Origin: a virus
IMG/VR virus record: IMGVR_UViG_3300023179_000029
Span: 62,001-126,000 of that record
Reading direction: 5' to 3' (one strand)
Length of the DNA: 64,000 nucleotides
Each line of letters begins with the position of its first letter. Positions within the stretch are counted from its first letter, which is position 1. Of the stretch, positions 48,706-61,452 are shown one piece after another. Under the pieces are notes generated by a model. It had not been told where the DNA came from. It did not search any database and saw nothing but the letters and a program-made list of their open reading frames with translations. Both the position numbers and the translations under genes were made by a program.

Positions 48706-48712
48706 TTTGCTA

Positions 48713-48970: not shown

Positions 48971-49005
48971 TTCTACCTCCCGGTAGTGGTTGATTTGTGT
49001 TTACT

Positions 49006-49202: not shown

Positions 49203-49227
49203 AATAACTCCTTTGGTTGATGCAATC

Positions 49228-49260: not shown

Positions 49261-49394
49261 GCCTGCTTACTGCTCTTTCGATCCTTCTTATTCTTTTGTT
49301 TCTTTGAAGGATCATGGCTGCCTGCACTGTTCCTCATGTGAGCAGCGACGGCGACCAAGTTTCTAGTTTTGGGTTGAGTGATCTTTTTCATCAT
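49242..49394 (-). CDS. 50-residue basic protein, leaderless
   Basis: MMKKITQPKTRNLVAVAAHM...KKQKNKKDRKSSKQALRSLY. The ATG pair lies 6-9 nt after the -10 box of promoter 12, so the message is probably leaderless. Very basic and Lys/Ser-rich; may bind nucleic acid. Its end runs through the boxes of promoter 11. Confidence 0.55.
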   Translation of the reverse strand: MMKKITQPKTRNLVAVAAHMRNSAGSHDPSKKQKNKKDRKSSKQALRSLY

Positions 49395-49399
49395 TAGTT

Positions 49400-49432
49400 A
49401 CGTTAGCAGGTGGATGGTAAAGAGAGTGTAAA
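49400..49432 (-). promoter_or_regulatory. TTTACC-type promoter 12
   Basis: -10 TAACGT (49400-49405), 10 nt, TTTACC (49416-49421), TTTACA (49427-49432). Leaderless start for the 50-aa basic gene. Confidence 0.7.
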
Positions 49433-49437
49433 ACATC

Positions 49438-49470
49438 CTACTAGTAGATTTGTCAGCTTCCTACTAGTAG
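49438..49470. repeat. Two copies of palindrome CTACTAGTAG
   Basis: Palindromic decamers at 49438-49447 and 49461-49470, 23 bp apart, within the non-coding transcript between promoters 13 and 12. Possible dimer-binding sites or small hairpins. Confidence 0.5.
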
Positions 49471-49492
49471 TTTGGTCAGGTGTTTGTCTGGT

Positions 49493-49544
49493 CCGTCCCG
49501 CCCACCCTGTCATTGTAGCGCAAAGCGGGTAAAGAAAGAGTAAA
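49493..49544 (-). promoter_or_regulatory. TTTACC-type promoter 13 with G-rich start
   Basis: -10 TACAAT (49512-49517), 10 nt, TTTACC (49528-49533), TTTACT (49539-49544). GGGTGGGCGGGACGG (49493-49507) lies at the start; about 75 nt without ORF follow. Confidence 0.65.
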
Positions 49545-49566
49545 GGCCGGGGCTTTCGCCCCGGCC
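49545..49566 (-). terminator. GC-rich hairpin ending the non-coding transcript
   Basis: GGCCGGGG/CCCCGGCC with CTTTCG loop, followed leftward by TTTACTC. Confidence 0.65.
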
Positions 49567-49856
49567 CTCCCTTCGCATATGCTGGCTAATTTTTACATCA
49601 GTTAGGCTTGCCTATTTTCCTAACCCAGATGGGACAAACGCTACTTTGTTATCCGAAACATGACTGCCGTAAGGTGGATCAGTCTACCGCACACGCACCT
49701 ATCTTAGCGTTGCGAACCTATAAGGACTGTTTAGCGAGATTTAGTCCACTCTCGGTAGCTCTCTGATAAGGCTAGCATAATCTATTATTTACCCTATAAA
49801 GGGAACGGATTACATTATCTAGCTACTTGGTTGTTGTTGCGCGCTTCATCAACAGG
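49545..49856 (-). ncRNA. Candidate non-coding RNA, about 310 nt
   Basis: A leftward transcript from promoter 14 would end at the hairpin 49545-49566. No ORF above 15 codons has a ribosome site in this span, and no tRNA or rRNA match was seen. Small complementary segments (GGACT/AGTCC) suggest folding. It could also be a leftover of deleted genes. Confidence 0.4.
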
Positions 49857-49860
49857 AACT

Positions 49861-49893
49861 ACTATAGCAGTCCAAGAGTAAAGACTAGGTAAA
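49861..49893 (-). promoter_or_regulatory. TTTACC-type promoter 14
   Basis: -10 TATAGT (49861-49866), 10 nt, TTTACT (49877-49882), TTTACC (49888-49893). Leads into the candidate ncRNA. Confidence 0.7.
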
Positions 49894-49915
49894 ACATCTA
49901 ATGTGTATTACCTCT

Positions 49916-49966
49916 GTCCCACCCGCCATACCCTACAAGTGTATCAACAAAATAATCGCTTGTCAA
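49916..49966 (-). promoter_or_regulatory. Sigma-70 promoter with the G-rich start but no TTTACC boxes
   Basis: TTGACA (49961-49966), 17 nt, TACACT (49938-49943); GGGTATGGCGGGTGGGAC (49916-49933) lies at the start. It links classical promoters with the G-rich element. 49967-50052 shows nothing beyond AT-rich sequence and a weak AGGGAAA/TTTCCCT hairpin. Confidence 0.65.
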
Positions 49967-50052
49967 GTATCAAATAATCATAATACTTTTTATAGTATAT
50001 TTCACTAGGGAAATTTCAATACTTTTCCCTGTAAATAAAGGCTTTTTATTTT

Positions 50053-50124
50053 TTGACAAATGAGGTATATTTATCAGAATATAATACAATAAATTGATTG
50101 TATCATATATTTTTCATTTGTCAA
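50053..50124. promoter_or_regulatory. Nested inverted repeats with promoter
   Basis: TTGACAAATGA (50053-50063) and TCATTTGTCAA (50114-50124) are perfect inverted copies; inside lies ATACAAT/ATTGTAT (50084-50090, 50097-50103). Leftward TTGACA (50119-50124), 16 nt, TACAAT (50097-50102) is a good promoter; the rightward TTGACA lacks a well-spaced -10. Looks like an operator-controlled promoter. Confidence 0.55.
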
Positions 50125-50142
50125 GGGCAAATATTACTTTAT

Positions 50143-50202
50143 TTATGCCTTAGCTGCGCAGAATACCATCACGGCACCTGTAACTACAAATAATACGGTC
50201 AT
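50143..50202 (-). CDS. 19-residue hydrophobic micropeptide
   Basis: MTVLFVVTGAVMVFCAAKA, with AAAGG spaced 5 nt. Long enough to cross a membrane once. Flanked by AT-rich regulatory DNA with TTACT/AGTAA repeats. It could be a type-I-toxin-like peptide or small membrane regulator; no antisense RNA is evident. Confidence 0.4.
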   Translation of the reverse strand: MTVLFVVTGAVMVFCAAKA

Positions 50203-50331
50203 AATACCTTTCAGATTGAATATTTTACTTATAGTAACGAATATATTACTTTCACCTATTATATACGCGCACGAGGGAGGGAGGCTGTTGAGGGGGGTGG
50301 ATAGGTTGATCACACATAAAATGAATATGTG

Positions 50332-50490
50332 TCAGTCTCTTGGATCCCACAAATAAATGAATAAGTAGGATGCTGCCCCTACTGCTGCCCCCACGCATAT
50401 CTTATTTATTAGATCAGGGGGAGCGATTGCCATAAATGTTATTCCTATGAGAATAGCTGAGACTATTCTTTTCTTTAGTATTGTTGTCAT
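50332..50490 (-). CDS. Small two-pass membrane protein
   Basis: 52 residues (MTTILKKRIVSAILIGITF...). Two hydrophobic segments (10-24 and 32-47) separated by PPDLINK. A G-rich stretch GGGAGGGAGG lies just downstream at about 50274 on the plus strand. No family recognised. Ribosome site not obvious. Confidence 0.55.
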   Translation of the reverse strand: MTTILKKRIVSAILIGITFMAIAPPDLINKICVGAAVGAASYLFIYLWDPRD

Positions 50491-50545
50491 GTTTATTCTT
50501 TTATGTTATTCATTGTATTGTTATCTGGAGGAATGTGGGCGACTA

Positions 50546-50785
50546 TCAGTATAGCCAACTGTCGTGAGTCTTGGCATCTAGCTCGTCCCACTTTTCTTTT
50601 TCTTTTAGGTCTGTGGAATAGATTTCAAAACCAAATAGACCGACTCTCACACGAATATACTTTTCATGTGAATTAGTTGCTTGGCGGTATATGCCAAATG
50701 AACCTTTCAGTGAACGGATGCGGCTCACCCGAAGAATCTTGATTTCTTTATTCTTTGTCTTGTATATTGTTTTATGTATTTCCAT
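50546..50785 (-). CDS. Small basic protein, unknown
   Basis: 79 residues (MEIHKTIYKTKNKEIKIL...). AAAAGGAAA ribosome site. Basic beta-like first half, then FGFEIYSTDLKEKEKWDELD. No family recognised. Confidence 0.6.
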   Translation of the reverse strand: MEIHKTIYKTKNKEIKILRVSRIRSLKGSFGIYRQATNSHEKYIRVRVGLFGFEIYSTDLKEKEKWDELDAKTHDSWLY

Positions 50786-50827
50786 TGTATTTCCTTTTAT
50801 TATTCTGGGGATGATTGTGGGCGACTA

Positions 50828-51385
50828 TTACTTTGCCCATTCGGGCGGATTGGGATTATCTTTGTAATGCTCCTGCCAATATTCTTTTCTTTGCTCTGCC
50901 CAATAATCCTTATCATTTATTTTCTTTGAATAATCAATAAATTCATCGTACCCTTCAGGAAGGCCAGCGACCACATTATTGATTTCTTGATTCCAGAGCT
51001 TATCGCGTTCATGCAAATACTTTTTCTCAAGCCATAGGTAAAGCCTGAACGCATAGTTGCTCAGGGATTTATATATCTTTCTTTTGCTCATTTTCTTTTC
51101 TTTCTTGTGAGCGACCATCTCTGTCGAAACGCCAAATACATCAGTAATATTATCTACTGAAAGCTGGTCCTTTATTTCTTTGCTCCAAGATTCTGGGACA
51201 AGTGGGCGATTTTCTTTATTTGATTGAACAGGAAAATTGACCTCAGTAAATAATCCGTCCAATTCGTCGGGGACTGTCTCGCAGTCACGGCAAACAGGAT
51301 CAGCGTCCTCCCAGAGCATGGCAGCATCCTCAAAGAGCTTGCCGCACTTACTACAATCGAACCATTCAATAGACCTACCGCCCAT
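50828..51385 (-). CDS. Zinc-ribbon protein
   Basis: 185 residues. CSKCGKLFEDAAMLWEDADPV-CRDC (about residues 11-35) is a classic zinc ribbon. The middle carries Pro/Ser linker, then KKMSKRKIYKSLSNYAFRLY and a helical acidic end (KDYWAEQRKEYWQEHY). Possibly nucleic-acid binding. Overlaps the next gene by 11 nt. Confidence 0.6.
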   Translation of the reverse strand: MGGRSIEWFDCSKCGKLFEDAAMLWEDADPVCRDCETVPDELDGLFTEVNFPVQSNKENRPLVPESWSKEIKDQLSVDNITDVFGVSTEMVAHKKEKKMSKRKIYKSLSNYAFRLYLWLEKKYLHERDKLWNQEINNVVAGLPEGYDEFIDYSKKINDKDYWAEQRKEYWQEHYKDNPNPPEWAK

Positions 51386-51581
51386 AATTAGTTACTCCAA
51401 TCTTGAATACATACTTCCACAGGTTTATTGACAAAGTATAATAAATGGGCGAAGGCGGAAGCAGCGTGGGCGCGATCCCGGTCATGCGAGTAAAACTAAT
51501 ACCAAGTATCCTATGGTGAGTGTAATGATAAGTTGCCTGAACACCAAACTCTGTATTGCCAATTTTAGTTTTCTTTATCAT
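51375..51581 (-). CDS. Small protein, paralogue of the 75-aa gene at 52.0 kb
   Basis: 68 residues from MIKKTKIGNTEFGVQATY; another ATG at 51596 is possible, both with weak ribosome sites. TKIGNTEFGVQATYHYTHHRI aligns with MKIGPLNIHVEGALTHHVI of the 75-aa protein, sharing KIG, V and the HH pair. Function unknown. Confidence 0.55.
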   Translation of the reverse strand: MIKKTKIGNTEFGVQATYHYTHHRILGISFTRMTGIAPTLLPPSPIYYTLSINLWKYVFKIGVTNYGR

Positions 51582-51786
51582 AAAAACTCGATCCATATTG
51601 TTTTTGTAGCTCGTCCCGATGCTCAGGCATATTCACATAAATATTACAAGCCTTTAGACTTGTAGCGCCATAAGAAAGACTAAGGCGGCTATCAACACCA
51701 TAAACGGGATCAAAAATAACATTATCGTCCTCGTCCACAACAATCCAACGATTGTCAGGGTATTTATTTCCTGTAACTACTCTCAT
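51565..51786 (-). CDS. Small protein, unknown
   Basis: 73 residues (MRVVTGNKYPDNRWIVVDED...). Good GGAG ribosome site. Beta-like start, then helix with YVNMPEHRDELQKQYG. Ends 16 nt inside the next gene. Confidence 0.6.
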   Translation of the reverse strand: MRVVTGNKYPDNRWIVVDEDDNVIFDPVYGVDSRLSLSYGATSLKACNIYVNMPEHRDELQKQYGSSFYDKEN

Positions 51787-51868
51787 TTGTTTCTCCGGTA
51801 AATTTCAGTAAGACCAATTATACATATCATACAAATAGATAACGATGCGGCCTCAAATATTTGGTTCG

Positions 51869-52096
51869 TCATTTATCTTTTGCGACAGCGACCCTAATCC
51901 AAGAAAACGGCAGGTTAGTGTCAAGGTTGAACCACGCTGGAGAGGTGTAAGGCTCTCCGTTGTCCCTCTGATAAGTCTTAGCCCTGCCAGCGCCCCACTC
52001 AACCGATCCTAGCCCGATCACATGATGCGTCAAAGCCCCCTCAACATGAATATTCAGGGGGCCAATCTTCATTTTCTTATCAAAATACTTGTTCAT
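51869..52096 (-). CDS. Small protein, paralogue of the 68-aa gene
   Basis: 75 residues (MNKYFDKKMKIGPLNIHV...). GGAG ribosome site. Shares the KIG-x(5)-V-x(6)-HH pattern with the gene at 51.4-51.6 kb. Function unknown. Confidence 0.6.
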   Translation of the reverse strand: MNKYFDKKMKIGPLNIHVEGALTHHVIGLGSVEWGAGRAKTYQRDNGEPYTSPAWFNLDTNLPFSWIRVAVAKDK

Positions 52097-52148
52097 GGTT
52101 TCTCCATTATATCACATATTTGATTTTTGATTACTTTTGTTTACATCT

Positions 52149-52187
52149 AGCGGGCGATTCCCTTATATTTATTGGAAACCGCCCGCT
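52149..52187 (-). terminator. Long hairpin after the 256-aa gene
   Basis: AGCGGGCG/CGCCCGCT (52149-52156, 52180-52187) with additional TTCC/GGAA pairing inside. Likely terminator without a proper T-run. Confidence 0.55.
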
Positions 52188-52223
52188 CACTTCTTTTTTA
52201 TCTTATGTGATCACTTCTTGTAT

Positions 52224-52243
52224 CATGTAACATTTGTTACATG
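52224..52243. promoter_or_regulatory. Palindrome CATGTAAC-ATTT-GTTACATG
   Basis: 8-bp perfect inverted repeat with 4-nt spacer just past the stop of the 256-aa gene. May be a hairpin of the transcript end or a dimeric operator. Confidence 0.5.
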
Positions 52244-52247
52244 AAAG

Positions 52248-53018
52248 TTAGTACCCGCTTACAGGCTCAATAAATTCGATATGACCGTCACCGTCAGGTG
52301 CAAAAAATGCCTGAGCATCCTCGTCCCACTTCAAGTCACCGAAATAGTCTAGCAGAGGATTGTCGCCCTCTTTTTTATCCCAACGGTAGCCGTAACCGAT
52401 GTACGCTCCGTCAGCGTCAGACACATCACCCTCACGGAAATCAAGGCGCACAGGTTCGCCCTTGCGATCATCAGCAGACTGAATAATGTAACTATTCCAG
52501 TCATATGAAATAATACCGGCCTCGCCATACTCACGGAAAATCTTTGGTGCCGTGTAGCCGCCACGAACATCGCAGCCGCCATGAATTTGTAGCATGAGAT
52601 AAATCTCACCCTCATACTCAAAGTAATGACCTTGAATAGTTTGCGAGAGCAGACAATCGTAGTTGTAAGAATTGAATCCACGAAGCCAATTGGTGGGATA
52701 CTTTTCACACCACTCGTCCATCAAAGTATACCAATCAGTCTTCTGATTTTCTTCCATATTACAAAAATCATCGAACTCGGATTGAATTTCTGGCATGAAC
52801 TCGATACGCTCGCGCAAATAATGAAATAGGTCAAGGCTGATGCCGTATTCTGTAACATTTACAGCGGGCGCGTCAATAAATGACTGAACATCCCTGCCTT
52901 TATTTCTTTCCCAATTGCGGCCATACGCGCCACCAGAGTCAAGCATATGACTCCCGGTATTTTCTGTCAGCATACCGGCAAGGATCTCGTCGGTCAGGGT
53001 AATGTTTTGATTAGTCAT
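52248..53018 (-). CDS. Conserved-looking phage protein, unknown
   Basis: 256 residues. GSHMLDSGGAYGRNWERNKG near the N-terminus recalls a phage hypothetical family (from memory). Later YLMLQIHGGCDVRGGYTAPKIF and HIEFIEPVSGY. Strong AAGGAG ribosome site. Alpha/beta, acidic. Function unknown. Confidence 0.65.
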   Translation of the reverse strand: MTNQNITLTDEILAGMLTENTGSHMLDSGGAYGRNWERNKGRDVQSFIDAPAVNVTEYGISLDLFHYLRERIEFMPEIQSEFDDFCNMEENQKTDWYTLMDEWCEKYPTNWLRGFNSYNYDCLLSQTIQGHYFEYEGEIYLMLQIHGGCDVRGGYTAPKIFREYGEAGIISYDWNSYIIQSADDRKGEPVRLDFREGDVSDADGAYIGYGYRWDKKEGDNPLLDYFGDLKWDEDAQAFFAPDGDGHIEFIEPVSGY

Positions 53019-53033
53019 GTTGTCTCCTTTTTA

Positions 53034-53213
53034 TTATCCTACAAATGATACCAACAGGGCGGTAGCCGCCAATGACCATACTATAGCAACCGTAACCCGG
53101 TGCCATGTATGCTTACAGAAACCGCGAGCGTAGTAACCGCCTACAGCAGCTAGACCCTCAAATCCAAGATGGAAGAAATAATCTGATAGTGTGAAATGAA
53201 ATGAAAAGTGCAT
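53034..53213 (-). CDS. Small membrane protein
   Basis: 59 residues (MHFSFHFTLSDYFFHLGF...). A C-terminal hydrophobic helix (VAIVWSLAATALLVSFVG) and a shorter one (GLAAVGGYYARG) suggest two passes. AAGAA ribosome site. Directly follows the 87-aa gene. Confidence 0.55.
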   Translation of the reverse strand: MHFSFHFTLSDYFFHLGFEGLAAVGGYYARGFCKHTWHRVTVAIVWSLAATALLVSFVG

Positions 53214-53219
53214 TTCTTT

Positions 53220-53483
53220 TTACTTACTGAGAGCGTCCCAGAACTCGTCGTGATTATTTCTTGCCTGACGGAGCTTCCAATGCCACGGATTGTAAGAATA
53301 ATCACCCTCAATACCGTGGTAGTAAACGCCAACATAAAGACCGGGCTGTTCGTCCAGCCTTCTAAACAATGATCCGTCACCTTCAAACAAACCACCAATG
53401 TAGGCGGCCTGCTCAGGCGTGATCCTGCCATCCTCAGTCGGCATATCCGCAATAGCGCGGACTACTTCTCGTTCACTAGCCAT
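53220..53483 (-). CDS. Small protein with LAGLIDADG-like start motif
   Basis: 87 residues. TPEQAAYIGGLFEGDGSLFRR resembles the first LAGLIDADG homing-endonuclease motif (AYxxGLFxGDG), but the rest is too short for the full enzyme (a single motif copy, no second). AGGAGG ribosome site. It may be a remnant or domesticated fragment. Driven by TTTACC promoter 15. Confidence 0.6.
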   Translation of the reverse strand: MASEREVVRAIADMPTEDGRITPEQAAYIGGLFEGDGSLFRRLDEQPGLYVGVYYHGIEGDYSYNPWHWKLRQARNNHDEFWDALSK

Positions 53484-53512
53484 TTGTTTCCTCCTAGTTG
53501 ATTGCTGAATAC

Positions 53513-53545
53513 AGTATAGACGATGCCGGGTAAAGAGTTGGTAAA
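53513..53545 (-). promoter_or_regulatory. TTTACC-type promoter 15
   Basis: -10 TATACT (53513-53518), 10 nt, TTTACC (53529-53534), TTTACC (53540-53545). Drives the 87-aa gene. Confidence 0.7.
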
Positions 53546-53547
53546 AC

Positions 53548-53787
53548 TTAGATTGTTTTATCTATGGCCTCGTTGAAGGCCTTTGTGTATTCCTTCATGT
53601 ATTCATCATTCTTCATTCTTTCCTCATGCTTACGCTTATGTAAAGATTTGACTTCCTCCCAATGCTTCCAAGATTTATCAAATGGATTTCTTACGATAAA
53701 ACAAAAGGCCTTATCGTAATCCCTATCTCCAAATTGGGTTGAAGTATACCCAATATACCAAAATCTATTATCAAACAGTTTGCGCAT
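53548..53787 (-). CDS. Small protein, unknown
   Basis: 79 residues from MRKLFDNRFWYIGYT; GGAG spaced 5 nt decides the start over the longer frame. Aromatic N-terminus, then WKHWEEVKSLHKRKHEERM and a helical end. No family recognised. Confidence 0.6.
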   Translation of the reverse strand: MRKLFDNRFWYIGYTSTQFGDRDYDKAFCFIVRNPFDKSWKHWEEVKSLHKRKHEERMKNDEYMKEYTKAFNEAIDKTI

Positions 53788-53983
53788 TATTCTCCAGAAT
53801 CCAATCGCCGTAATAATCAACCTTCATCATTCTATAAGCATCTTCCAACTCTTTATTTTGCTCAATAAGATTATTTCTTGCAGAACCCTTCGGCAACTGC
53901 TCAATATGATAATCATTACGACCGACTTGACGCATGAGCAAGCTCGTAACCTTTAGATATGTTTCATTACTAAGTTTTGACAT
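53771..53983 (-). CDS. Small helical protein, unknown
   Basis: 70 residues (MSKLSNETYLKVTSLLMRQ...), with LIEQNKELEDAYRMMKVDYY. ATGA overlap with the next gene. No family recognised. Confidence 0.6.
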   Translation of the reverse strand: MSKLSNETYLKVTSLLMRQVGRNDYHIEQLPKGSARNNLIEQNKELEDAYRMMKVDYYGDWILENNAQTV

Positions 53984-54219
53984 CAGTTCTCCTTTGATTC
54001 GATTGCATCAGCCCATTCTAGCACCTTCTGAGCTACTTCACGGGCCATCTTAGGCGTCATAGTCATAGCCGCGCTGCGTAGGTACTCATTGCTGTAATCA
54101 GTCACATGCAGCCCGATTCTAGTCGCATCCTCACGGGCATAATCGGGATCATCTGACTCGCTAGTGCGACCGTAGACCTCAATCAACCCATGATTATTTT
54201 TGTATGTTATTTCTTTCAT
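53983..54219 (-). CDS. Small protein, unknown
   Basis: 78 residues from MKEITYKNNHGLIEVYGR; the extension to 54252 would use TTG. ARED-type acidic middle, then TPKMAREVAQKVLEWADAIE helix. No ribosome site is clear. Confidence 0.55.
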   Translation of the reverse strand: MKEITYKNNHGLIEVYGRTSESDDPDYAREDATRIGLHVTDYSNEYLRSAAMTMTPKMAREVAQKVLEWADAIESKEN

Positions 54220-54270
54220 AAATGAGGGTTCGTAATTTTTATTACAAAACAATATATCGCTGCAATTATT

Positions 54271-54423
54271 TTACTTATCATTAGACTTAATTTGATCAGC
54301 AATAACAGACCCAGCAAAAATACCCAACATGGTTGCGTAAGCTGTCTGAGGACTTACCCAACCCAAAATAGAAACCAAAGACAGAGCGGTTCCAATTCCT
54401 GTTCCATAAATAAAAGGCTTCAT
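54271..54423 (-). CDS. Small two-pass membrane protein
   Basis: 50 residues (MKPFIYGTGIGTALSLVSIL...). Two hydrophobic segments around residues 6-22 and 30-42. ATGA overlap with the gene before; GGAG ribosome site inside that gene. Function unknown. Confidence 0.6.
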   Translation of the reverse strand: MKPFIYGTGIGTALSLVSILGWVSPQTAYATMLGIFAGSVIADQIKSNDK

Positions 54424-54530
54424 TCGTCATCTCCTTCATCATCCTTGTTTACAGCAATCAAAACCAGAGTCAGCATCGCAACATAAAATATGGTTAGACC
54501 TGCTGCGATTGTTGGCGCACTAATGCTCAT
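54420..54530 (-). CDS. Small single-pass membrane protein
   Basis: 36 residues: MSISAPTIAAGLTIFYVAML...VNKDDEGDD. Hydrophobic helix 7-28, then an acidic end. Overlaps both neighbours by 4 nt, so it belongs to one coupled cluster of two membrane peptides. Confidence 0.55.
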   Translation of the reverse strand: MSISAPTIAAGLTIFYVAMLTLVLIAVNKDDEGDDE

Positions 54531-54784
54531 TTAATATCCTTTCTATTCCAAAAAACACTCTTGGAGTATTCATTCTTACAATCACGGGCTTGTACCGTTG
54601 TGTAAGTAATTTCAATATCTATTACATTGTCCTCTGCAACCATACCAATAACAATTTCGCTCTTTAGATCACGGGCGGCGCTCAGGAAATTCTCAAACTT
54701 ATACTCGCCGTAAGTTCCATCATCATTTAGAACAAATGCCGTGACAGGGAACGAACGATTATCATTATCATTAAGAATACTCAT
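54527..54784 (-). CDS. Small protein, unknown
   Basis: 85 residues (MSILNDNDNRSFPVTAFVL...), mixed alpha/beta with acidic middle. ATGA overlap with the next gene upstream. No family recognised. Confidence 0.6.
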   Translation of the reverse strand: MSILNDNDNRSFPVTAFVLNDDGTYGEYKFENFLSAARDLKSEIVIGMVAEDNVIDIEITYTTVQARDCKNEYSKSVFWNRKDIK

Positions 54785-54999
54785 GCTTCACCATTCTTAC
54801 AATGAGCGCACCACGGGCGATCACAGTCAGCAATTCTTATTGTATTACCATTTGTGCGCAGCGGGCTAATCCACCAATCAACATCGGATTCAAGCTCCCA
54901 CACGCTCAGGGCATCATCTGTGGTCGCATACGGACCATACACGGTAATTCCATTTAGAGGATCACCCACTACGACCACGACTCCGTTAGTATCAGTCAT
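54781..54999 (-). CDS. Small protein, unknown
   Basis: 72 residues, NGVVVVVGDPLNGITVYGPY then a Trp-rich acidic part (LSVWELESDVDWWISPL) and CDRPWCAHC near the end, which could hold a metal. No family recognised. Confidence 0.6.
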   Translation of the reverse strand: MTDTNGVVVVVGDPLNGITVYGPYATTDDALSVWELESDVDWWISPLRTNGNTIRIADCDRPWCAHCKNGEA

Positions 55000-55219
55000 T
55001 TTTTATCATTCCTTCAAGTGTATCAATAATTGGCACAAAGTCAATTTTGTTTACTTGCTCCTGCGCGTTAGTCAAAAAAGTTAGCGCCTCTGTCTGTGAC
55101 AGGTGGGCTTTAGCCAACCTAATATTATCTTGTATAGTAGAAATCCTAAATTCGATCTTTTGGATTACTGTTTCAATATCATTTAGAACTTCGTTTATTT
55201 CTTTTTGTCTTTCTGTCAA
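54992..55219 (-). CDS. Coiled-coil protein with TTG start
   Basis: 75 residues; TTG start is supported by AAAGGA spaced 6 nt and no ATG near. Long helical coiled coil (QKEINEVLNDIETVIQKIEF). No family recognised. Confidence 0.6.
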   Translation of the reverse strand: MTERQKEINEVLNDIETVIQKIEFRISTIQDNIRLAKAHLSQTEALTFLTNAQEQVNKIDFVPIIDTLEGMIKND

Positions 55220-55307
55220 TTTTTTCCTTTAACTTTTCGGGTGTCCAATTTTTGTATTCAAAGAGCGCCTGAATACGCTCGTTTTCTTTTTGCTGCTTCT
55301 TGTTCAT
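55179..55307 (-). CDS. 42-residue basic protein
   Basis: MNKKQQKENERIQALFEYKN...KRNKRSSK; overlaps the next gene by 41 nt and starts on the stop of the 212-aa gene. Highly basic. Supported by gene packing only. Confidence 0.45.
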   Translation of the reverse strand: MNKKQQKENERIQALFEYKNWTPEKLKEKIDRKTKRNKRSSK

Positions 55308-55945
55308 TAAAGCGTCACTACATCCCTAGCGGCCCAATACGCCCGCTCAGAATCCTCTTTAGCCTTACGCTCACGGTAGCAGCCAAGTTCAAACTCAAAA
55401 GCCTCCTCAGCGGCTTCCTCAGCGTACCTGTAACCGATTAGACCGCCACAACCGTCACCCTCACCATCAGGGCAATCAATTGTGTAGTAATAAACATCAC
55501 CACTAGCCCAATCAGAATACTCGTCAATTTCTCCGTTGAGCCATTTCTTGATAGTAGCCTCGTCACGCTCTGCAATACCAAGATAATCCATGCGCTCTTC
55601 TGTAGTGAAAATAACTCCGCACAGGGAGCTATCCCATTGGCAAGTGTAAGGATTAGACTCGCCCATCGAATAACTTACGCTTGAATGGTCATACATCCAC
55701 ACAGGGTAAATATGAATAGCGCCGTGATTTTCTTTCAGATAATCAATAGCCTCGTCAAGAGAATCAAAATCCTCAAACTTAAAACCCTTGACCTCTTGTG
55801 GAAGATAATAGCTGCGATGCTCTCGACAAACAAAGATGCCAAGATTGTCGTTGTCGCGGGGATCGTACATATCGCCGCTGTAATCTACATAAAGATTACA
55901 CTTAACGCCGTCCTGCTCCCAAGTCTCTACGGGATCGTTATACAT
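55307..55945 (-). CDS. Acidic protein, unknown
   Basis: 212 residues from MYNDPVETWEQDG; AGGGGG spaced 4 nt. Contains DNLGIFVCREHRSYYLP, GVIFTTEERMDYLG, and a C-terminal YYTIDCPDGEGDGCGG then EEAAEEAFEFELG. Similar in style to phage hypothetical proteins. No motif tells the function. Confidence 0.6.
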   Translation of the reverse strand: MYNDPVETWEQDGVKCNLYVDYSGDMYDPRDNDNLGIFVCREHRSYYLPQEVKGFKFEDFDSLDEAIDYLKENHGAIHIYPVWMYDHSSVSYSMGESNPYTCQWDSSLCGVIFTTEERMDYLGIAERDEATIKKWLNGEIDEYSDWASGDVYYYTIDCPDGEGDGCGGLIGYRYAEEAAEEAFEFELGCYRERKAKEDSERAYWAARDVVTL

Positions 55946-55953
55946 AATGCCCC

Positions 55954-56178
55954 CTATGCCCTGTCCCAAGCAGGCCACTCGTTATTTTCTGCGATATCAA
56001 AAGCCTGCTCCCTGATATCTTCGTCAATGATTGGATTCCAACTATGGTCCACATCATAAACATCAGCAAAGTCAGGCAGGAAAATGTTTTCGTTTTCCTG
56101 TAGAACGCGCTCCACTTCCTTAGTCTCAGTGTCAATAAAGACCGTAGCGGGGATCAAATATGTTACTGCTACCTTCAT
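55954..56178 (-). CDS. Small protein, unknown
   Basis: 74 residues (MKVAVTYLIPATVFIDTETK...). Starts with a beta hairpin and ends acidic (DIAENNEWPAWDRA). AAGGAGG ribosome site; driven by TTTACC promoter 16. Confidence 0.6.
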   Translation of the reverse strand: MKVAVTYLIPATVFIDTETKEVERVLQENENIFLPDFADVYDVDHSWNPIIDEDIREQAFDIAENNEWPAWDRA

Positions 56179-56207
56179 AACTGCCTCCTTGATTGGTTGC
56201 TGTTACC

Positions 56208-56240
56208 AGCATATCAACTACAGGGTAAAGAGAGAGTAAA
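56208..56240 (-). promoter_or_regulatory. TTTACC-type promoter 16
   Basis: -10 TATGCT (56208-56213), 10 nt, TTTACC (56224-56229), TTTACT (56235-56240). Confidence 0.7.
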
Positions 56241-56241
56241 A

Positions 56242-56487
56242 TCAGTCCTCGTCCCACGGTGAACAATGCGTAGGCTCATTGGTAATCAAATCAGCCCGGT
56301 ACTTATCTACCTCAATCTCGATATCCCGAGCAAGACGGTAAATAAATTCCTCGTATGCCTCGTCCCATTCAAGACCGGCATCATCAGCCTGAGTCTTGTA
56401 GATATCAATAAGTTCATAAAAAATGAACTCGCACTCTTCGTCTACCTTGACTTCCTTGTTATTTACAACGATAGTGCGGTCACGCAT
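56242..56487 (-). CDS. Small acidic paralogue A (DxGxEW family)
   Basis: 81 residues. QADDAGLEWDEAYEEFIYRL matches QAEDEGIEWTQEHNEFIE and EAVDYGVEWTAEHDKFVE of two genes at 58.3-58.7 kb: A-x-D-x-G-x-EW, then an aromatic or His and F. AAGGAGG ribosome site. All three are acidic and helical; function unknown. Confidence 0.65.
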   Translation of the reverse strand: MRDRTIVVNNKEVKVDEECEFIFYELIDIYKTQADDAGLEWDEAYEEFIYRLARDIEIEVDKYRADLITNEPTHCSPWDED

Positions 56488-56516
56488 AACGCCTCCTTAG
56501 TTGAATCGTGCTACAC

Positions 56517-56549
56517 ACGGTAGCAGCCCCGTGGTAAAGGGATGGTAAA
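56517..56549 (-). promoter_or_regulatory. TTTACC-type promoter 17
   Basis: -10 TACCGT (56517-56522), 10 nt, TTTACC (56533-56538), TTTACC (56544-56549). Drives paralogue A. Confidence 0.7.
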
Positions 56550-56551
56550 AC

Positions 56552-56821
56552 CTAGCCTTCTAGCTTGTGAAGCTCAGTCAGGCGCTCAGTAATACTTTCA
56601 AGATCCTGTGGATCCTCCTCAATCGGATGGTACGGATCCTCGTTATCAATAATTTTTAGAATGAGCTTTTCTTCATCGGTTGCGGTATCAACAACAAAAC
56701 TCGCGGTCTTGCCCTGAATAAATACCTCACCCGGCTCATTTACCTTAGACTCGTATGGCGTGAACATATTAATATATCCTGACACCATATTGTCTACTGC
56801 TCGCTGTGTAGCCTCGTCCAT
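56552..56821 (-). CDS. Small acidic protein, unknown
   Basis: 89 residues from MDEATQRAVDNMVSGYIN; AAGGAG spaced 6 nt. Beta middle (GEVFIQGKTASFVVD), helical end (LESITERLTELHKLEG). Operon partner of the secreted lytic-enzyme-like gene. Confidence 0.6.
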   Translation of the reverse strand: MDEATQRAVDNMVSGYINMFTPYESKVNEPGEVFIQGKTASFVVDTATDEEKLILKIIDNEDPYHPIEEDPQDLESITERLTELHKLEG

Positions 56822-56831
56822 TTTTATCTCC

Positions 56832-57248
56832 TTAGAGGGCATGACGCCCGTTGTATGATCTATACAGTCTATCAAAAAGCCTAGCGGCATAAAACGCATC
56901 GTGCCGTAGATCGCCGGTGGCGGGACCAATCAGCCCAAAATGATTCCAAGCCCGCCCTGCGCCGCTCTCAGCGACCCAGACGCCCAACAGAAGCCTCCAC
57001 GGTACCCGGTACTTGACTGCGGCCTCTAGGACAATCCCGCGATTCTTTCCGTGAGGGGCATACCTGTAATAACTATTAATTCGTCCAATGTTGTAACTTC
57101 TGCCTGTATAAGTATTTACAGGACCACTCCAATCCAAACTAACGGGCGCATTTCTTACTTTATGCTCTAAGGTTTCCTTTTTTGCTGCCTGAGCAACAGC
57201 GGGAAGCGAAGCAATCAGTGTAATAATAATAGTCAAAATACTTTTCAT
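56832..57248 (-). CDS. Secreted lysozyme/transglycosylase-like protein
   Basis: 138 residues from MKSILTIIITLIASLPAVA; AAGGAG spaced 6 nt. Clear signal peptide (residues 1-22, AQA cleavage-like). The C-terminal half YRVPWRLLLGVWVAESGAG...NHFGLIGPATG resembles the start of a lytic-transglycosylase fold, with the Glu in AESGAG as likely acid. Truncated compared with typical enzymes, which are 150-200 residues, so activity is uncertain. An unusual stem-loop array precedes it. Confidence 0.6.
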   Translation of the reverse strand: MKSILTIIITLIASLPAVAQAAKKETLEHKVRNAPVSLDWSGPVNTYTGRSYNIGRINSYYRYAPHGKNRGIVLEAAVKYRVPWRLLLGVWVAESGAGRAWNHFGLIGPATGDLRHDAFYAARLFDRLYRSYNGRHAL

Positions 57249-57271
57249 AATAACTCCTTGTGTAAGATTAT

Positions 57272-57441
57272 GGGGAGGGGGCCAACGACAACCCCCTCCC
57301 CGTTTGCGCAAGTTTTATCTTGCGACCTGAGTTCTCGGTACTCAGGGCTTTTATTGCCGAAGTGACCAGCTTCGGCGGGTGAGGGAGTGAAGGAGGAAAA
57401 TCTCCCTCACCACCTTGATCTTAGCATAAATTTACTAAGAT
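57272..57441 (-). promoter_or_regulatory. Six consecutive stem-loops upstream of the secreted lysozyme-like gene
   Basis: Perfect stems at 57272-57301 (GGGGAGGGGG/CCCCCTCCCC, 10 bp), 57307-57324 (CGCAAG, 6 bp), 57326-57346 (CCTGAGT, 7 bp), 57356-57376 (GCCGAAG, 7 bp), 57378-57411 (GGTGAGGGAG, 10 bp) and 57418-57441 (ATCTTAG, 7 bp). Only short spacers separate them. Read leftward, the loop of the 57378-57411 stem carries CCTCCTT, which could pair with the AAGGAG ribosome site of the next gene. No TTTACC promoter lies inside, so the array is within an operon. Confidence 0.6.
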
Positions 57442-57675
57442 TCAAGACTCATCAACGTATCCGATCATATCAACGGCAAAATTAAGTAGTAGCTTAGACG
57501 CTTTAATTTGACTTTGCGCCTCTTTAAGCTCTAGCTCCGCCATATCAAGATCGACCAGCATCATGCTGCGAGCAAATTCATTTTTTTCAATTGCCCGACG
57601 ATTGATTTCTTTTGTTACAATGTTTATTGCAGAAACAATCTGGTCAATCGTGTTATCTGTTTCAACAATAATCAT
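57442..57675 (-). CDS. Small helical protein, unknown
   Basis: 77 residues (MIIVETDNTIDQIVSAINI...); coiled-coil-like centre (LVDLDMAELELKEAQSQIK) and hydrophobic end. Overlaps the next gene by 4 nt. No family recognised. Confidence 0.6.
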   Translation of the reverse strand: MIIVETDNTIDQIVSAINIVTKEINRRAIEKNEFARSMMLVDLDMAELELKEAQSQIKASKLLLNFAVDMIGYVDES

Positions 57676-57854
57676 GCTTTGTCACGTTCGGGATCATGCT
57701 TCGGCGGCTTAGTTCCCATAAATGCCGGGTGCATGGTGCGGGCGACCGGGAAAGGCTTATCAAGCATATGATTCTGCTTGTAAATCGTGACAGGCTGGCC
57801 CGTCTGCTGTGCCTCTGCGATTGCTGCATCCCACTTCTTTAGAAAATTACTCAT
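57672..57854 (-). CDS. Small basic protein, unknown
   Basis: 60 residues from MSNFLKKWDAAIAEAQQTG; AAGGAG spaced 7 nt. Ends basic (GTKPPKHDPERDKA). No family recognised. Confidence 0.6.
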   Translation of the reverse strand: MSNFLKKWDAAIAEAQQTGQPVTIYKQNHMLDKPFPVARTMHPAFMGTKPPKHDPERDKA

Positions 57855-57871
57855 TTGTTTCTCCTTGTTAT

Positions 57872-58234
57872 TTAGTACCTGAAAAGGTATGTTGTGCCTT
57901 GCCACTCAACTTCTGAGAAGTCCATCTTAAGTTCCTCAGCCGCAGCATCCCAATCAATATGACTTATCGGCCAATCGTAGCTGCTCACAGTGACAGCGCC
58001 AATATCGCTAGCGAACTCCTCAGCATACTGAGTAAAATCATCCTCTGCGATAAAATAAATTAGGTTTTTTGCAGCAGATTCTAGATCCATTCCAAGCTCG
58101 CTTTCAAGCTCATTAATTTCATCAAGCTCGTATTGAGCCTCCTTTTGCTCGTCTACAGAATATTGCTCGTCCTCGTCATTAAGGATTTCTACAAGCTCGT
58201 TCCTGCGCTCCAATACTTCATCAATGTCTAGCAT
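57872..58234 (-). CDS. Acidic phage protein with WPxxHIDW motif
   Basis: 120 residues. Helical N-terminus (LDEINELESELGMDLE), then IYFIAEDDFTQYAEEFASDI and WPISHIDWDAAAEELKMDF, a combination recalled in several actinophage small proteins. AAAGGA ribosome site. Function unknown. Confidence 0.65.
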   Translation of the reverse strand: MLDIDEVLERRNELVEILNDEDEQYSVDEQKEAQYELDEINELESELGMDLESAAKNLIYFIAEDDFTQYAEEFASDIGAVTVSSYDWPISHIDWDAAAEELKMDFSEVEWQGTTYLFRY

Positions 58235-58270
58235 AGTTAATTCCTTTGGTCGTATTTAACTGCTGCGTAC

Positions 58271-58303
58271 AGCATAACAGATCAAGAGTAAGGGTTTGGT
58301 AAA
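58271..58303 (-). promoter_or_regulatory. TTTACC-type promoter 18, degenerate first box
   Basis: -10 TATGCT (58271-58276), 10 nt, CTTACT (58287-58292), TTTACC (58298-58303). Drives the 120-aa gene and the operon containing the stem-loop array. Confidence 0.55.
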
Positions 58304-58305
58304 AC

Positions 58306-58521
58306 CTACTCGTCCTCGCTAAAGGTTGGCAGCGGCTCTGCAAAATGACTCATGTACATATCCACTGCCTGAATTACTTGATTGTAAAGGCTGGCAGCAT
58401 GAGGCTCAATAAACTCATTATGCTCCTGAGTCCATTCGATGCCTTCATCCTCTGCCTGCTGCTTGTAACTATCCCTGAGATAATTGTCAATAGCCTCATA
58501 GATTAAATTCTTGTCACTCAT
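58306..58521 (-). CDS. Small acidic paralogue B (DxGxEW family)
   Basis: 71 residues from MSDKNLIYEAIDNYLRDS; GAGG inside the previous gene as ribosome site. Carries QAEDEGIEWTQEHNEFIE. Adjacent to paralogue C with an 8-nt overlap. Confidence 0.65.
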   Translation of the reverse strand: MSDKNLIYEAIDNYLRDSYKQQAEDEGIEWTQEHNEFIEPHAASLYNQVIQAVDMYMSHFAEPLPTFSEDE

Positions 58522-58738
58522 TCTCGTCCTCCTCAATTGCTTCGGCAAGGCCCGGAAGCTCTGGTGCCTCTATATTATACCAATTGCTTTTACTGTCCTC
58601 AAGATAACTGCAAAGGTCGCTTGCCGCATCTTCTACAAACTTGTCATGCTCGGCAGTCCACTCTACACCATAATCTACTGCTTCGGCGTGATAGTGACCA
58701 TAAACCTCGTCAAAGATATACTGATATCTAATTGCCAT
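58514..58738 (-). CDS. Small acidic paralogue C (DxGxEW family)
   Basis: 74 residues from MAIRYQYIFDEVYGHYHA. Contains EAVDYGVEWTAEHDKFVE and an acidic end. Coupled to the 52-aa gene by an 11-nt overlap. Tandem duplication with paralogue B. Confidence 0.65.
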   Translation of the reverse strand: MAIRYQYIFDEVYGHYHAEAVDYGVEWTAEHDKFVEDAASDLCSYLEDSKSNWYNIEAPELPGLAEAIEEDENE

Positions 58739-58886
58739 CGTCGTCCATCTCCTTGTCGTAATCAACAATTACACACCCACAGTCCATGCACTCTACCGCA
58801 ACATTAACGGGTTTATCTGTGCCATAGGTCACACACTCCAAATCGTGACCCACATGATTAATGAGATCCTCAAAATGATTTACCAT
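58728..58886 (-). CDS. 52-residue Cys-rich protein
   Basis: MVNHFEDLINHVGHDLECV...; CMDCGC near residue 34 and another Cys at 18, a possible metal knuckle. AAGGAA spaced 4 nt from the second ATG. Overlaps paralogue C. Confidence 0.55.
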   Translation of the reverse strand: MVNHFEDLINHVGHDLECVTYGTDKPVNVAVECMDCGCVIVDYDKEMDDDGN

Positions 58887-59106
58887 CATATTCCTTATAG
58901 TTCACATCAAGAAGCTTGTCATTTGCTTCCAGATAATCATATGCCGTCTGTACCATTAGCTCGTCCGGCACCTCGCGCTGCCAATATACCAGATTGGGAA
59001 GCGGGCCGCCATGCGCCTTGATTTCTGTCACGATGCCCCTGTCACGGTCAGCCCGTGACAGGAAACACCAATCGCCGTTGTCGCTGCTAAAGCCGTAAAC
59101 GATCAT
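58870..59106 (-). CDS. Small protein, unknown
   Basis: 78 residues (MIVYGFSSDNGDWCFLSR...). Beta-like start then an acidic helix with LMVQTAYDYLEAND. 4-nt overlap with the gene upstream, 17-nt overlap with the gene downstream. No family recognised. Confidence 0.6.
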   Translation of the reverse strand: MIVYGFSSDNGDWCFLSRADRDRGIVTEIKAHGGPLPNLVYWQREVPDELMVQTAYDYLEANDKLLDVNYKEYDGKSF

Positions 59107-59705
59107 GTGTGAACATCCACAGACAGGATAGCAAGCCCGTAGTCCTCGCCGTCCGTCAGGTCAAAGGTGCGAGCCGTGTAAGGCGTCACATCCCAAGCGT
59201 TGAAGAACGGGGGATTGAAATACTTATCCAGAAACCGCTCATAAGTCTCAGCAAGCCACGGACGAGTGTAGGACAGCTTCCAATCCTCAAAACCATCATC
59301 GGTGCCAGCATAACTATTTGCAAGCGCCTCACGGATGGCACCAGCGGCATCCTCAATTGACTCAAACTCGCGGAAATTGTCGCGGGGCGTATCAGTAAGA
59401 ATGTTGATCCTGTTATTGATATCCCAATACAAAGACTTGTATGCGGCATCAACAGCGGCATCAAAATTCCAGCTATCCCTATCGTCAATCCAAGCGTCCA
59501 CACCACCGCGATAATTGTCAGAGCTAAATTCGGCAGGGTGGCCGTCCTTGTAAGTCAAAGCCAGCGGTGTGTACCAATTGTTGTCATCAAACTTATGATC
59601 AACATAGTCAGCAAACTGCTCATGCTCTGTGGCAAAAATCTTGCCGTCTTGATAAATCATATCATCTTCATCAAGATTGATTAGGAAATGATTAAGTGAA
59701 TGCAT
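59103..59705 (-). CDS. Acidic protein, unknown
   Basis: 200 residues (MHSLNHFLINLDEDDMIY...). Rich in Asp, Tyr and Trp; FADYVDHKFDDNNWYTPL, INILTDTPRDNFREFES and FDLTDGEDYGLAILSVDVHT. AAGGAG ribosome site. TTTACC promoter 19 upstream. No family recognised. Confidence 0.6.
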   Translation of the reverse strand: MHSLNHFLINLDEDDMIYQDGKIFATEHEQFADYVDHKFDDNNWYTPLALTYKDGHPAEFSSDNYRGGVDAWIDDRDSWNFDAAVDAAYKSLYWDINNRINILTDTPRDNFREFESIEDAAGAIREALANSYAGTDDGFEDWKLSYTRPWLAETYERFLDKYFNPPFFNAWDVTPYTARTFDLTDGEDYGLAILSVDVHT

Positions 59706-59735
59706 TTAATTCTCCTTAGTGGTTGTCGTGCTTAC

Positions 59736-59768
59736 ACGGTAGCAGGTCGTAGGTAAAGGGTTGGCAAA
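59736..59768 (-). promoter_or_regulatory. TTTACC-type promoter 19
   Basis: -10 TACCGT (59736-59741), 10 nt, TTTACC (59752-59757), TTTGCC (59763-59768). Confidence 0.7.
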
Positions 59769-59963
59769 TCAGCCAACCCCTACCTTTGCGAGCTTCCGTT
59801 CGATGTAAGAAACAATCGAATCCGCATTAGCAATATCGCCTTCGATGTACCTGATTGCTTCATCTGTGTTCTGCTGAGTTTCCAGAACATTATGAAGCTC
59901 CTCCGCGTAACTATTTGCGATGCGGATAATTTCTACTGCAACATCAATATCTACTTCAATCAT
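59769..59963 (-). CDS. Small helical protein, unknown
   Basis: 64 residues (MIEVDIDVAVEIIRIANSY...), acidic two-helix layout. AGGAGG ribosome site. Its stop abuts the second box of promoter 19. Confidence 0.6.
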   Translation of the reverse strand: MIEVDIDVAVEIIRIANSYAEELHNVLETQQNTDEAIRYIEGDIANADSIVSYIERKLAKVGVG

Positions 59964-60189
59964 TATTTACCTCCTGAATCATCCAGTCAAGAAAATGACC
60001 GTCGCCTCGTTCACACTCTTCAAGCAAATTATGCAGGTATTCGTCCATCACATGAGAGTATTCAAGCCTGCCCTCAATACGCTCACCCTCGTAATCAATT
60101 ACCTCGCGGACGGCATCGGCCTCAGTCGGTGCCTCAACCTCAACCGTCTGGTAATGAATTTCTGGTACTTGAATATGATACTTCGGCAT
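59956..60189 (-). CDS. Small protein, unknown
   Basis: 77 residues from MPKYHIQVPEIHYQTVEVE; ATG overlaps the stop of the preceding gene, the 137-aa DUF4241-like one. Beta start, then a helix with LHNLLEECERGDGHFLDWMI. No family recognised. Confidence 0.6.
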   Translation of the reverse strand: MPKYHIQVPEIHYQTVEVEAPTEADAVREVIDYEGERIEGRLEYSHVMDEYLHNLLEECERGDGHFLDWMIQEVNND

Positions 60190-60602
60190 CAAAGATCCTC
60201 CTCGTCACAATTGCAGTAGTCGTAGCTCAGGTCTGTGCCGCACTCAGGGCAAAGATCATCCTCGTTCACGGGATCAAAATCAATTGTGAGCGTCTTGATC
60301 CTGCCGTTGCGGTCAAGCTCTGCGTACACGGGGTACAGACCATCGCCGTATGCGGTGCGGGAAGCAATTGCGAGCTTCTGGCCGTATGCGTTTCTGAGAG
60401 CGCCATAGCCTTCCTTGCTCAGAGTTGCGTTACAGCACCCATCGTAATTCATTTCGTATGAATCCTGCGTGGGCGCGTCGTCAAACTCGCCAAGCTGACC
60501 CGGATCGAATTCCTTGACGAAATCAGTGTTGATGTAGCAGGGATCAATAATCATTACCTGCCCGCTATCAACGGCGATCTCACCAATCTTTGTCTTTGTC
60601 AT
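60189..60602 (-). CDS. DUF4241-like protein with zinc ribbon
   Basis: 137 residues. AVDSGQVMIIDPCYINTDF near the N-terminus matches the DUF4241 signature (SGxLxxxDPCY), and AYGDGLYPVYAELDRNGRI continues it. A zinc knuckle (CPECGTDLSYDYCNC) ends the protein. DUF4241-type proteins are widespread in phages; function not established. Coupled to both neighbours. Confidence 0.7.
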   Translation of the reverse strand: MTKTKIGEIAVDSGQVMIIDPCYINTDFVKEFDPGQLGEFDDAPTQDSYEMNYDGCCNATLSKEGYGALRNAYGQKLAIASRTAYGDGLYPVYAELDRNGRIKTLTIDFDPVNEDDLCPECGTDLSYDYCNCDEEDL

Positions 60603-60856
60603 GCTACTTCTCCTTTCACAACATCCTGAGATGTGTAATTGTCGTAGTTGTCAATGGCGGCTTGAATCCAAGCCTGCCGGTTGTATGTATTGCGGTCCTC
60701 AACGATATCACAGTCGCCACAGACAAGGGTACCATATCCCTGAGCCTCACCGGGGGCAATAAGCTCAATGGTTCCATCATCAAATACAGCGCGAACCTCA
60801 ACATCCATGCTAAGAAATACCGCGTCACTGGTACAGCTAGGGCATACTGCTTTCAT
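60599..60856 (-). CDS. Zinc-ribbon protein
   Basis: 85 residues. CPSCTSDAVF near the N-terminus and CGDCDI about 45 residues on form a zinc ribbon, then an acidic helix. AGGAG ribosome site. TTTACC promoter 20 precedes it. Confidence 0.65.
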   Translation of the reverse strand: MKAVCPSCTSDAVFLSMDVEVRAVFDDGTIELIAPGEAQGYGTLVCGDCDIVEDRNTYNRQAWIQAAIDNYDNYTSQDVVKGEVA

Positions 60857-60891
60857 TTGTTACTCCTTTGTCGTATTGAATAACTGAATAC

Positions 60892-60924
60892 AAGGTATCA
60901 GGTTGCGGGTAAAGACTTAGTAAA
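60892..60924 (-). promoter_or_regulatory. TTTACC-type promoter 20
   Basis: -10 TACCTT (60892-60897), 10 nt, TTTACC (60908-60913), TTTACT (60919-60924). Overlaps the end of the 135-aa gene. Confidence 0.7.
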
Positions 60925-61324
60925 GGTGTCCCGTACTCGAAAACGGGTTCTCCATAATCTTTGCCCGAATCTTCTCCAGATCAGCAAGCTCATGCTGTGG
61001 CCTGTCCCTGCGATTGGTAAGCTGATCTTGAATGTATCGGAGCTTACTTACCGTGTTTGGGCGGGCATCAGTCGAATGACGGTCGGGGCTATTCACCTGC
61101 ATACGCGGATCATTAATTACCGCTTCAACCTTCTCAGCCCAAATCTTTTCTTCTGCTGACTTCTTGCTTGCCCTTGCGGCATGGGCGGCCTCCAAGCCAC
61201 TCAGCCCGCTGCTCACGGCCTTTGGTTCGCTATGCTCAGGGCAATTAATAGGAATGCGACCGCGCTGTGACGGGCGCTCCCAAGTGTGATTGCCAGCTTC
61301 ACAATGCAGCGTTCTCATAGTCAT
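60917..61324 (-). CDS. Basic protein with Cys/His finger
   Basis: 135 residues. MRTLHCEAGNHTWERPSQRG...CPEH (one Cys/His/Cys/His site) followed by a long basic helical part (LEAAHAARASKKSAEEKIW). AAGGAG ribosome site. Possibly a small DNA-binding protein; TTTACC promoter 21 precedes it. Confidence 0.6.
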   Translation of the reverse strand: MTMRTLHCEAGNHTWERPSQRGRIPINCPEHSEPKAVSSGLSGLEAAHAARASKKSAEEKIWAEKVEAVINDPRMQVNSPDRHSTDARPNTVSKLRYIQDQLTNRRDRPQHELADLEKIRAKIMENPFSSTGHLY

Positions 61325-61353
61325 AATGATCTCCTTGATCGTTGGTTAGAACC

Positions 61354-61386
61354 ATCGTAGCACATCTTCTGTAAAGACTTGGTAAA
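61354..61386 (-). promoter_or_regulatory. TTTACC-type promoter 21
   Basis: -10 TACGAT (61354-61359), 10 nt, TTTACA (61370-61375), TTTACC (61381-61386). Confidence 0.7.
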
Positions 61387-61427
61387 GAGAGGACGCCGCG
61401 AGGGGGAGTATGGTCTTTTATATCCTG

Positions 61428-61452
61428 AGCTAACGGGGAGGGGGCGTTAGCT
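61428..61452 (-). terminator. Hairpin after the DUF932 gene
   Basis: AGCTAACG/CGTTAGCT (8 bp) with GC-rich 9-nt loop; no T-run follows on the minus strand. Confidence 0.55.

What the first reader, a model, noticed from the sequence alone, without database searches (positions are those of the whole stretch)
57272..57441. Six perfect stem-loops in a row in an operon
Six stems of 6 to 10 bp with no mismatch are placed end to end in 170 nt between a 77-aa gene and a secreted lysozyme-like gene. That density is far above other gaps in the window. Read in the direction of transcription, the loop of the second stem carries CCTCCTT, matching the anti-Shine-Dalgarno and able to pair with the AAGGAG of the following gene. 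This could be a structured regulatory RNA or an RNase-resistant barrier that times expression of a wall-attacking protein.
Basis: partly seen in the sequence, partly recalled or inferred. Interest (0 to 1): 0.68.

Follow-up and report, generated by a model that had tools for sequence, protein, structure and literature searches.

The report
Six-hairpin cluster inside a phage operon
A phage of the actinobacterial-phage type carries six perfect RNA hairpins packed back to back just upstream of a small secreted, probably wall-cutting protein; the cluster is real and far beyond chance, but it is found in this one phage only and most likely just dampens or separates expression within the operon rather than being a new kind of regulatory RNA.

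Summary
Six uninterrupted Watson-Crick stems (7, 10, 7, 7, 6 and 10 bp; 47 bp in all) lie at 57272-57441, 1-9 nt apart, starting directly after the stop codon of the 77-aa gene. None of 5,000 shuffles had more than three such hairpins, the fold z-score is about -7, and nothing equals it in about 1.3 Mb of held sequence, mostly relatives.

The CCTCCTT loop can pair with the next gene's Shine-Dalgarno sequence, but pairs more strongly with 16 of 19 other ribosome-binding sites tested. The lysozyme-like gene's own site is no more buried than its neighbours'. The array has no homologue anywhere searched, so covariation is untestable. In one relative the two flanking genes overlap, with neither array nor lysozyme-like gene; in another that gene (53% identical) lies 4 nt after its neighbour, with no hairpins.

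Best reading: a lineage-specific hairpin cluster resembling this phage's own transcription-unit-end hairpins, placed inside an operon, where it probably partly terminates or insulates transcription into the lysozyme-like gene. mRNA processing/stabilisation is a close rival; a functionless recent scar is possible.

The parts
57442..57675 (-). 77-aa gene directly upstream; its stop codon is immediately followed by H1
   Evidence: homologues in G009 (47%) and G006 (42%)
57418..57441 (-). Hairpin H1, 7 bp perfect (9 bp with a wobble pair), A+T-rich, -7.8 kcal/mol
57378..57411 (-). Hairpin H2, 10 bp, loop ATTTTCCTCCTTCA with anti-Shine-Dalgarno-like CCTCCTT, -17.4 kcal/mol
57356..57376 (-). Hairpin H3, 7 bp, -9.6 kcal/mol; followed by single-stranded AATAAAAGC linker
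57326..57346 (-). Hairpin H4, 7 bp, -8.7 kcal/mol; only on the + strand does it have a T-rich tail
57307..57324 (-). Hairpin H5, 6 bp, -6.6 kcal/mol
57272..57301 (-). Hairpin H6, 10 bp (13 with wobble pairs), GGGGAGGGGG/CCCCCTCCCC, -25.7 kcal/mol; same GGGAGGGG stem type as hairpins at transcription-unit ends elsewhere in the window
57249..57271 (-). Leader of the lysozyme-like gene with Shine-Dalgarno AAGGAG
56832..57248 (-). 138-aa secreted lysozyme-like protein (signal-peptide-like N terminus, ESG...N.FGLIG motif); weakly similar to the C-terminal domain of a larger protein of the same phage
56552..56821 (-). 89-aa next gene; in relative G009 its homologue overlaps the end of the 77-aa homologue
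58260..58316 (-). Nearest upstream promoter-like site (tandem TTTACC-type repeats plus TGTTATGCTG), proposed promoter of the gene run 58234-56552

Best explanation
The array is a lineage-specific cluster of U-tract-less hairpins that acts as transcription punctuation. RNA polymerase coming from the promoter near 58293 reads the three upstream genes, meets six hairpins straight after the 77-aa stop codon, and is partly terminated. The lysozyme-like gene and the gene after it are thereby insulated and expressed at a lower level, by read-through. Shown here: the hairpins, their position directly after a stop codon, the lack of a recognisable promoter between array and lysozyme-like gene, the likeness of H6 (and, less closely, H2) to G-rich hairpins at other transcription-unit ends in the window, and the absence of the whole array-plus-gene unit at the equivalent site of one relative. 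Inferred: that termination occurs, that it is partial, and that it matters for dosage or timing of the lysozyme-like protein.
For: The cluster fits the published definition of hairpin-cluster intrinsic termination: hairpins under 15 nt apart, mostly within 80 nt of a stop codon, no U-tract needed (PMC8355165). The gaps here are 1-9 nt and H1 starts directly after the stop codon. Elsewhere in the window, G+C-rich hairpins lie after stop codons and are followed by promoter motifs: 47716-47742, 48207-48228, 48682-48706 and 61428-61452, with 49545-49566 similar in a longer gap. GGGAGGGG occurs 8 times against 0.95 expected, six of these in the two arms of three hairpins including H6. Weak, non-significant matches to H6 fall in intergenic gaps of Rhodococcus and Streptomyces phages. 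No promoter motif lies in the array (best score there 1.4, against above 17 for the motif family), and no sigma-70-like site.
Against: No hairpin has a U-tract in the direction of transcription, and the terminator scan finds none on the minus strand; the same phage has hairpins with T-rich tails elsewhere (for example 10071-10098). The function of U-tract-less clusters is itself inferred from RNA-seq correlation. Two genes lie downstream with no other recognisable promoter, so strong termination would silence them. No transcript data exist.
Confidence: 0.4

Rival explanations
1. mRNA processing and stability element: the operon transcript is cut in the single-stranded A-rich linker between H3 and H4, leaving H1-H3 to protect the upstream messages' 3' end and H4-H6 to protect the lysozyme-like message's 5' end.
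For: The array is within a gene run without an internal promoter; the hairpins flank a 9-nt A-rich linker AATAAAAGC. Cutting of polycistronic transcripts to uncouple gene expression is well documented (PMC3997798).
Against: No homologue with a conserved linker, no transcript ends known; six stems are more than such a device needs.
Confidence: 0.25
2. Neutral or recent acquisition: DNA brought in, or generated, when the lysozyme-like gene moved within the operon, with no present function, or acting at the DNA level (cruciform, recombination or replication site).
For: The array is found only in this contig. It is absent where the two flanking genes overlap in G009 and where the lysozyme-like gene sits elsewhere in L137. 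The stems are almost as stable on the other strand (z -6.7 against -7.4).
Against: Six intact stems without one mismatch are unlikely to persist without selection unless very recent; no repeats or recombinase signature were seen.
Confidence: 0.2
3. Specific regulatory RNA: the anti-Shine-Dalgarno loop of H2 pairs with the lysozyme-like gene's Shine-Dalgarno and holds translation back until a signal releases it, as first read.
For: The loop holds CTCCTT, complementary over 6 nt to AAGGAG; only 2.8% of random 14-mers from this strand pair as well. T4 lysozyme gene e is a precedent for translational delay by RNA structure (PMC3014915).
Against: The pairing is not specific to this gene. The loop is about 130 nt and four hairpins away. 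The ribosome-binding site is as open as its neighbours'. No homologue, no Rfam match.
Confidence: 0.1

Closest known systems
Hairpin-cluster intrinsic terminators (Gupta and Pal 2021, PMC8355165)
   Same: Several hairpins less than 15 nt apart, close to a stop codon, no U-tract
   Different: Six hairpins is at the rare end (occurrence falls exponentially with number, per the abstract); here inside a gene run rather than between operons; in a phage; termination not measured
Promoter-terminator stem-loop cassettes (PeSL) of T4-type phages (Arbiol 2010, Comeau 2014; papers not held, known here by citation and from own knowledge)
   Same: Hairpin-bearing intergenic segment at the edge of a gene present in one phage and absent at the same site in a relative
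   Different: No promoter motif in the array; no second copy in the genome or in relatives
Structure-controlled translation of T4 lysozyme gene e (PMC3014915)
   Same: RNA structure upstream of a wall-degrading protein
   Different: In T4 the ribosome-binding site is held in the helix; here it is not
Intercistronic processing/stability stem-loops such as those of the puf operon (hairpins from own knowledge; operon decay in PMC3997798)
   Same: Hairpins between genes of one transcript
   Different: No cleavage or decay data; far more hairpins

Membership tests
Hairpin-cluster intrinsic terminator (PMC8355165) | Hairpins separated by fewer than 15 nt | tested here: met
   Gaps 6, 1, 9, 1, 5 nt
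Hairpin-cluster intrinsic terminator (PMC8355165) | Located within about 80 nt downstream of a stop codon | tested here: met
   H1 starts directly after the stop codon of the 77-aa gene
Hairpin-cluster intrinsic terminator (PMC8355165) | Drop in transcript coverage at the cluster | not testable with these tools
   No transcript data
Hairpin-cluster intrinsic terminator (PMC8355165) | Lies at the end of an operon | tested here: inconclusive
   Co-directional genes follow with no promoter motif between
Canonical U-tract intrinsic terminator | Hairpin followed by a run of T on the transcribed strand | tested here: not met
   None on the minus strand; one weak match, H4, on the plus strand
Known Rfam RNA family | Covariance-model match at the gathering score | tested here: not met
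   No match; only chance-level matches at relaxed threshold
Conserved structured regulatory RNA | Compensatory base changes among homologues | tested here: inconclusive
   No homologue found in any collection searched, so nothing to compare
Ribosome-binding-site-sequestering leader (T4 gene e type) | Shine-Dalgarno or start codon held in a stable helix | tested here: not met
   Mean unpaired probability 0.47, within neighbours' range; local stem only -2.7 kcal/mol
Promoter stem-loop (PeSL) cassette | Early promoter within the hairpin-bearing segment | tested here: not met
   No phage promoter motif or sigma-70-like site in the array

The most novel reading that the evidence does not exclude
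The array is a dedicated six-hairpin regulatory RNA, with an anti-Shine-Dalgarno loop and strong terminator-like stems, that keeps a secreted wall-attacking protein off until a phage antitermination or RNA-binding factor acts late in infection.
Probability: 0.08. Interest if true: 0.6.

Novelty: new member of a known kind. Interest (0 to 1): 0.3.

Why it matters
If it terminates or attenuates, it is a clear natural example of a long U-tract-less hairpin cluster working inside a phage operon, a mechanism so far argued mainly from RNA-seq correlation. It would also show how a phage can add a potentially harmful wall-attacking gene to an existing operon while keeping its expression low. If it is only a recent scar, it is of little general interest.

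Tried and rejected
Homologues of the array: blastn against phages and plasmids, DNA search of 44 related records, two degenerate pattern scans of IMG/VR and a covariance model over about 1 Mb of loci and 33 records. The model is weak, being built from one sequence given twice, and the empty record search had no positive control. Nothing homologous was found. The H5-like match in five relatives is in what looks like coding sequence and is taken as chance. The two contigs with an H2-like hairpin are unrelated and have single hairpins near capsid-type genes. The L143 match is in a coding sequence. A moron with its own promoter: TGCTAAGAT in H1 resembles the phage -10 element, but the full motif scores only 1.4, against above 17 for the motif family. 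A small ORF inside the array: none plausible on reading. tRNA or known RNA: none. The structure model of the lysozyme-like protein was of low confidence (pLDDT 51), so no fold search was run.

Full report
Setting. The window is bases 62001-126000 of a 127,398-bp IMG/VR phage record. Its major capsid protein has its nearest named relatives, at 53-56% identity, in phages of Mycobacterium, Gordonia and Rhodococcus, and many closer relatives among uncultured contigs. The region of interest is a dense run of small genes on the minus strand.

Observation. Read in the direction of transcription, the 77-aa gene ends at 57442. The next base begins six hairpins: H1 57441-57418, H2 57411-57378, H3 57376-57356, H4 57346-57326, H5 57324-57307 and H6 57301-57272. 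Their stems are 7, 10, 7, 7, 6 and 10 Watson-Crick pairs without interruption, separated by 6, 1, 9, 1 and 5 nt. Folding of 206 nt gives these hairpins, with z -7.1 and no shuffle as stable. None of 5,000 shuffles of the 170 nt had more than three such hairpins. No cluster in the window or in 1.35 Mb of held sequence, mostly relatives, matches it. The lysozyme-like gene's ATG follows H6 by 23 nt, with Shine-Dalgarno AAGGAG.

Transcription context. A matrix built from the phage's own recurrent motif, tandem CTTTACC repeats 11 nt apart followed by TGCTANNNT, finds 23 sites scoring above 12 in the window. They include 58293 upstream of this gene run and 56539 just after it, but none in or near the array. 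A sigma-70-type scan also finds none there, and finds no U-tract terminator on the minus strand. Hence the genes 58234 to 56552 probably form one transcription unit with the array inside; this is inference. Elsewhere in the window, G+C-rich perfect hairpins after stop codons are followed by promoter sites, and the GGGAGGGG stem shared by H6 is over-represented (8 against 0.95 expected). H6, and less closely H2, look like this phage's own transcription-unit-end hairpins. The array gap is the only one longer than 60 nt in the 46.7-62.5 kb gene run that holds several G+C-containing hairpins and no promoter site.

Comparison with relatives. In G009 the homologue of the 77-aa gene (47%) ends inside the start of the homologue of the 89-aa gene (64%): the two reading frames overlap by 14 nt, and there is no array and no lysozyme-like gene between them. 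In IMGVR_UViG_3300032225_001122 a 53% identical lysozyme-like gene exists, but it follows a homologue of the 89-aa gene after 4 nt, with no array and no significant structure. The array is therefore tied neither to this operon position nor to the lysozyme-like gene across relatives; whether it was gained here or lost elsewhere cannot be told from so few genomes. No homologue of the array was found anywhere, so covariation could not be tested. Records very close to the window may be left out of the collections.

The gene downstream. The 138-aa protein has a signal-peptide-like N terminus and an ESG...N.FGLIG motif kept in its one homologue. It has no significant Pfam, PHROG, NCBIfam or PDB match. 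Its homologue weakly matches the Glucosaminidase family below threshold (E 0.016). A larger protein of the same phage has a distantly similar C-terminal domain (28%, E 9e-7; ORF). 'Lysozyme-like' is thus a fair but unproven label.

The anti-Shine-Dalgarno idea. The H2 loop pairs with the lysozyme-like gene's site at -7.8 kcal/mol. Of 19 other phage ribosome-binding sites tested, 16 pair more strongly and only three more weakly. It is a general complement to Shine-Dalgarno sequences, not a match to its neighbour. Accessibility of the lysozyme-like gene's site (0.47) is ordinary (range 0.36-0.79). Sequestration of the T4 gene e type (PMC3014915) is not seen.

Mechanism. The cluster fits the definition of hairpin-cluster intrinsic termination: hairpins less than 15 nt apart, close to the stop codon, no U-tract required (PMC8355165). 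With no other promoter before the lysozyme-like gene, the most economical reading is partial termination or insulation, lowering expression of the genes beyond. Processing and stabilisation of the two halves of the message is a close rival, and a recent insertion scar without function remains possible. None of these has direct evidence.

Verdict. A real, striking and strongly non-random structure, probably a member of a known kind, found in one phage only. Interest is modest.

Noticed in passing
window 47000-61400, minus strand: About 20 promoter-like sites of tandem CTTTACC repeats 11 nt apart plus TGCTANNNT, before most transcription units; looks like an activator-box promoter class of this phage.
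   Followed up: partly
window 47377, 47674, 48173, 49507 (minus strand): Four of these promoters are followed at once by nearly the same G-rich leader GGG(A/T)GGGCGGG, and each has a second promoter 78-112 nt further on.
   Followed up: partly
window 46540-46700: Apparently non-coding element conserved at 79-86% in three relatives (L111, L100, L101) and carrying a plus-strand promoter-like site at 46641.
   Followed up: partly
L139 7938-8010: Hairpin after a capsid-type gene whose loop CCTCCTTTA is a 9-nt perfect complement of the next gene's Shine-Dalgarno TAAAGGAGG; a better candidate for loop-to-Shine-Dalgarno control than the window's array.
   Followed up: no
window 61428-61452: Hairpin after the DUF932 gene whose loop is CCCCCTCCC, another anti-Shine-Dalgarno-like loop.
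   Followed up: no
window 49438-49470: 10-bp hairpin made of two copies of the palindrome CTACTAGTAG between two promoters.
   Followed up: no
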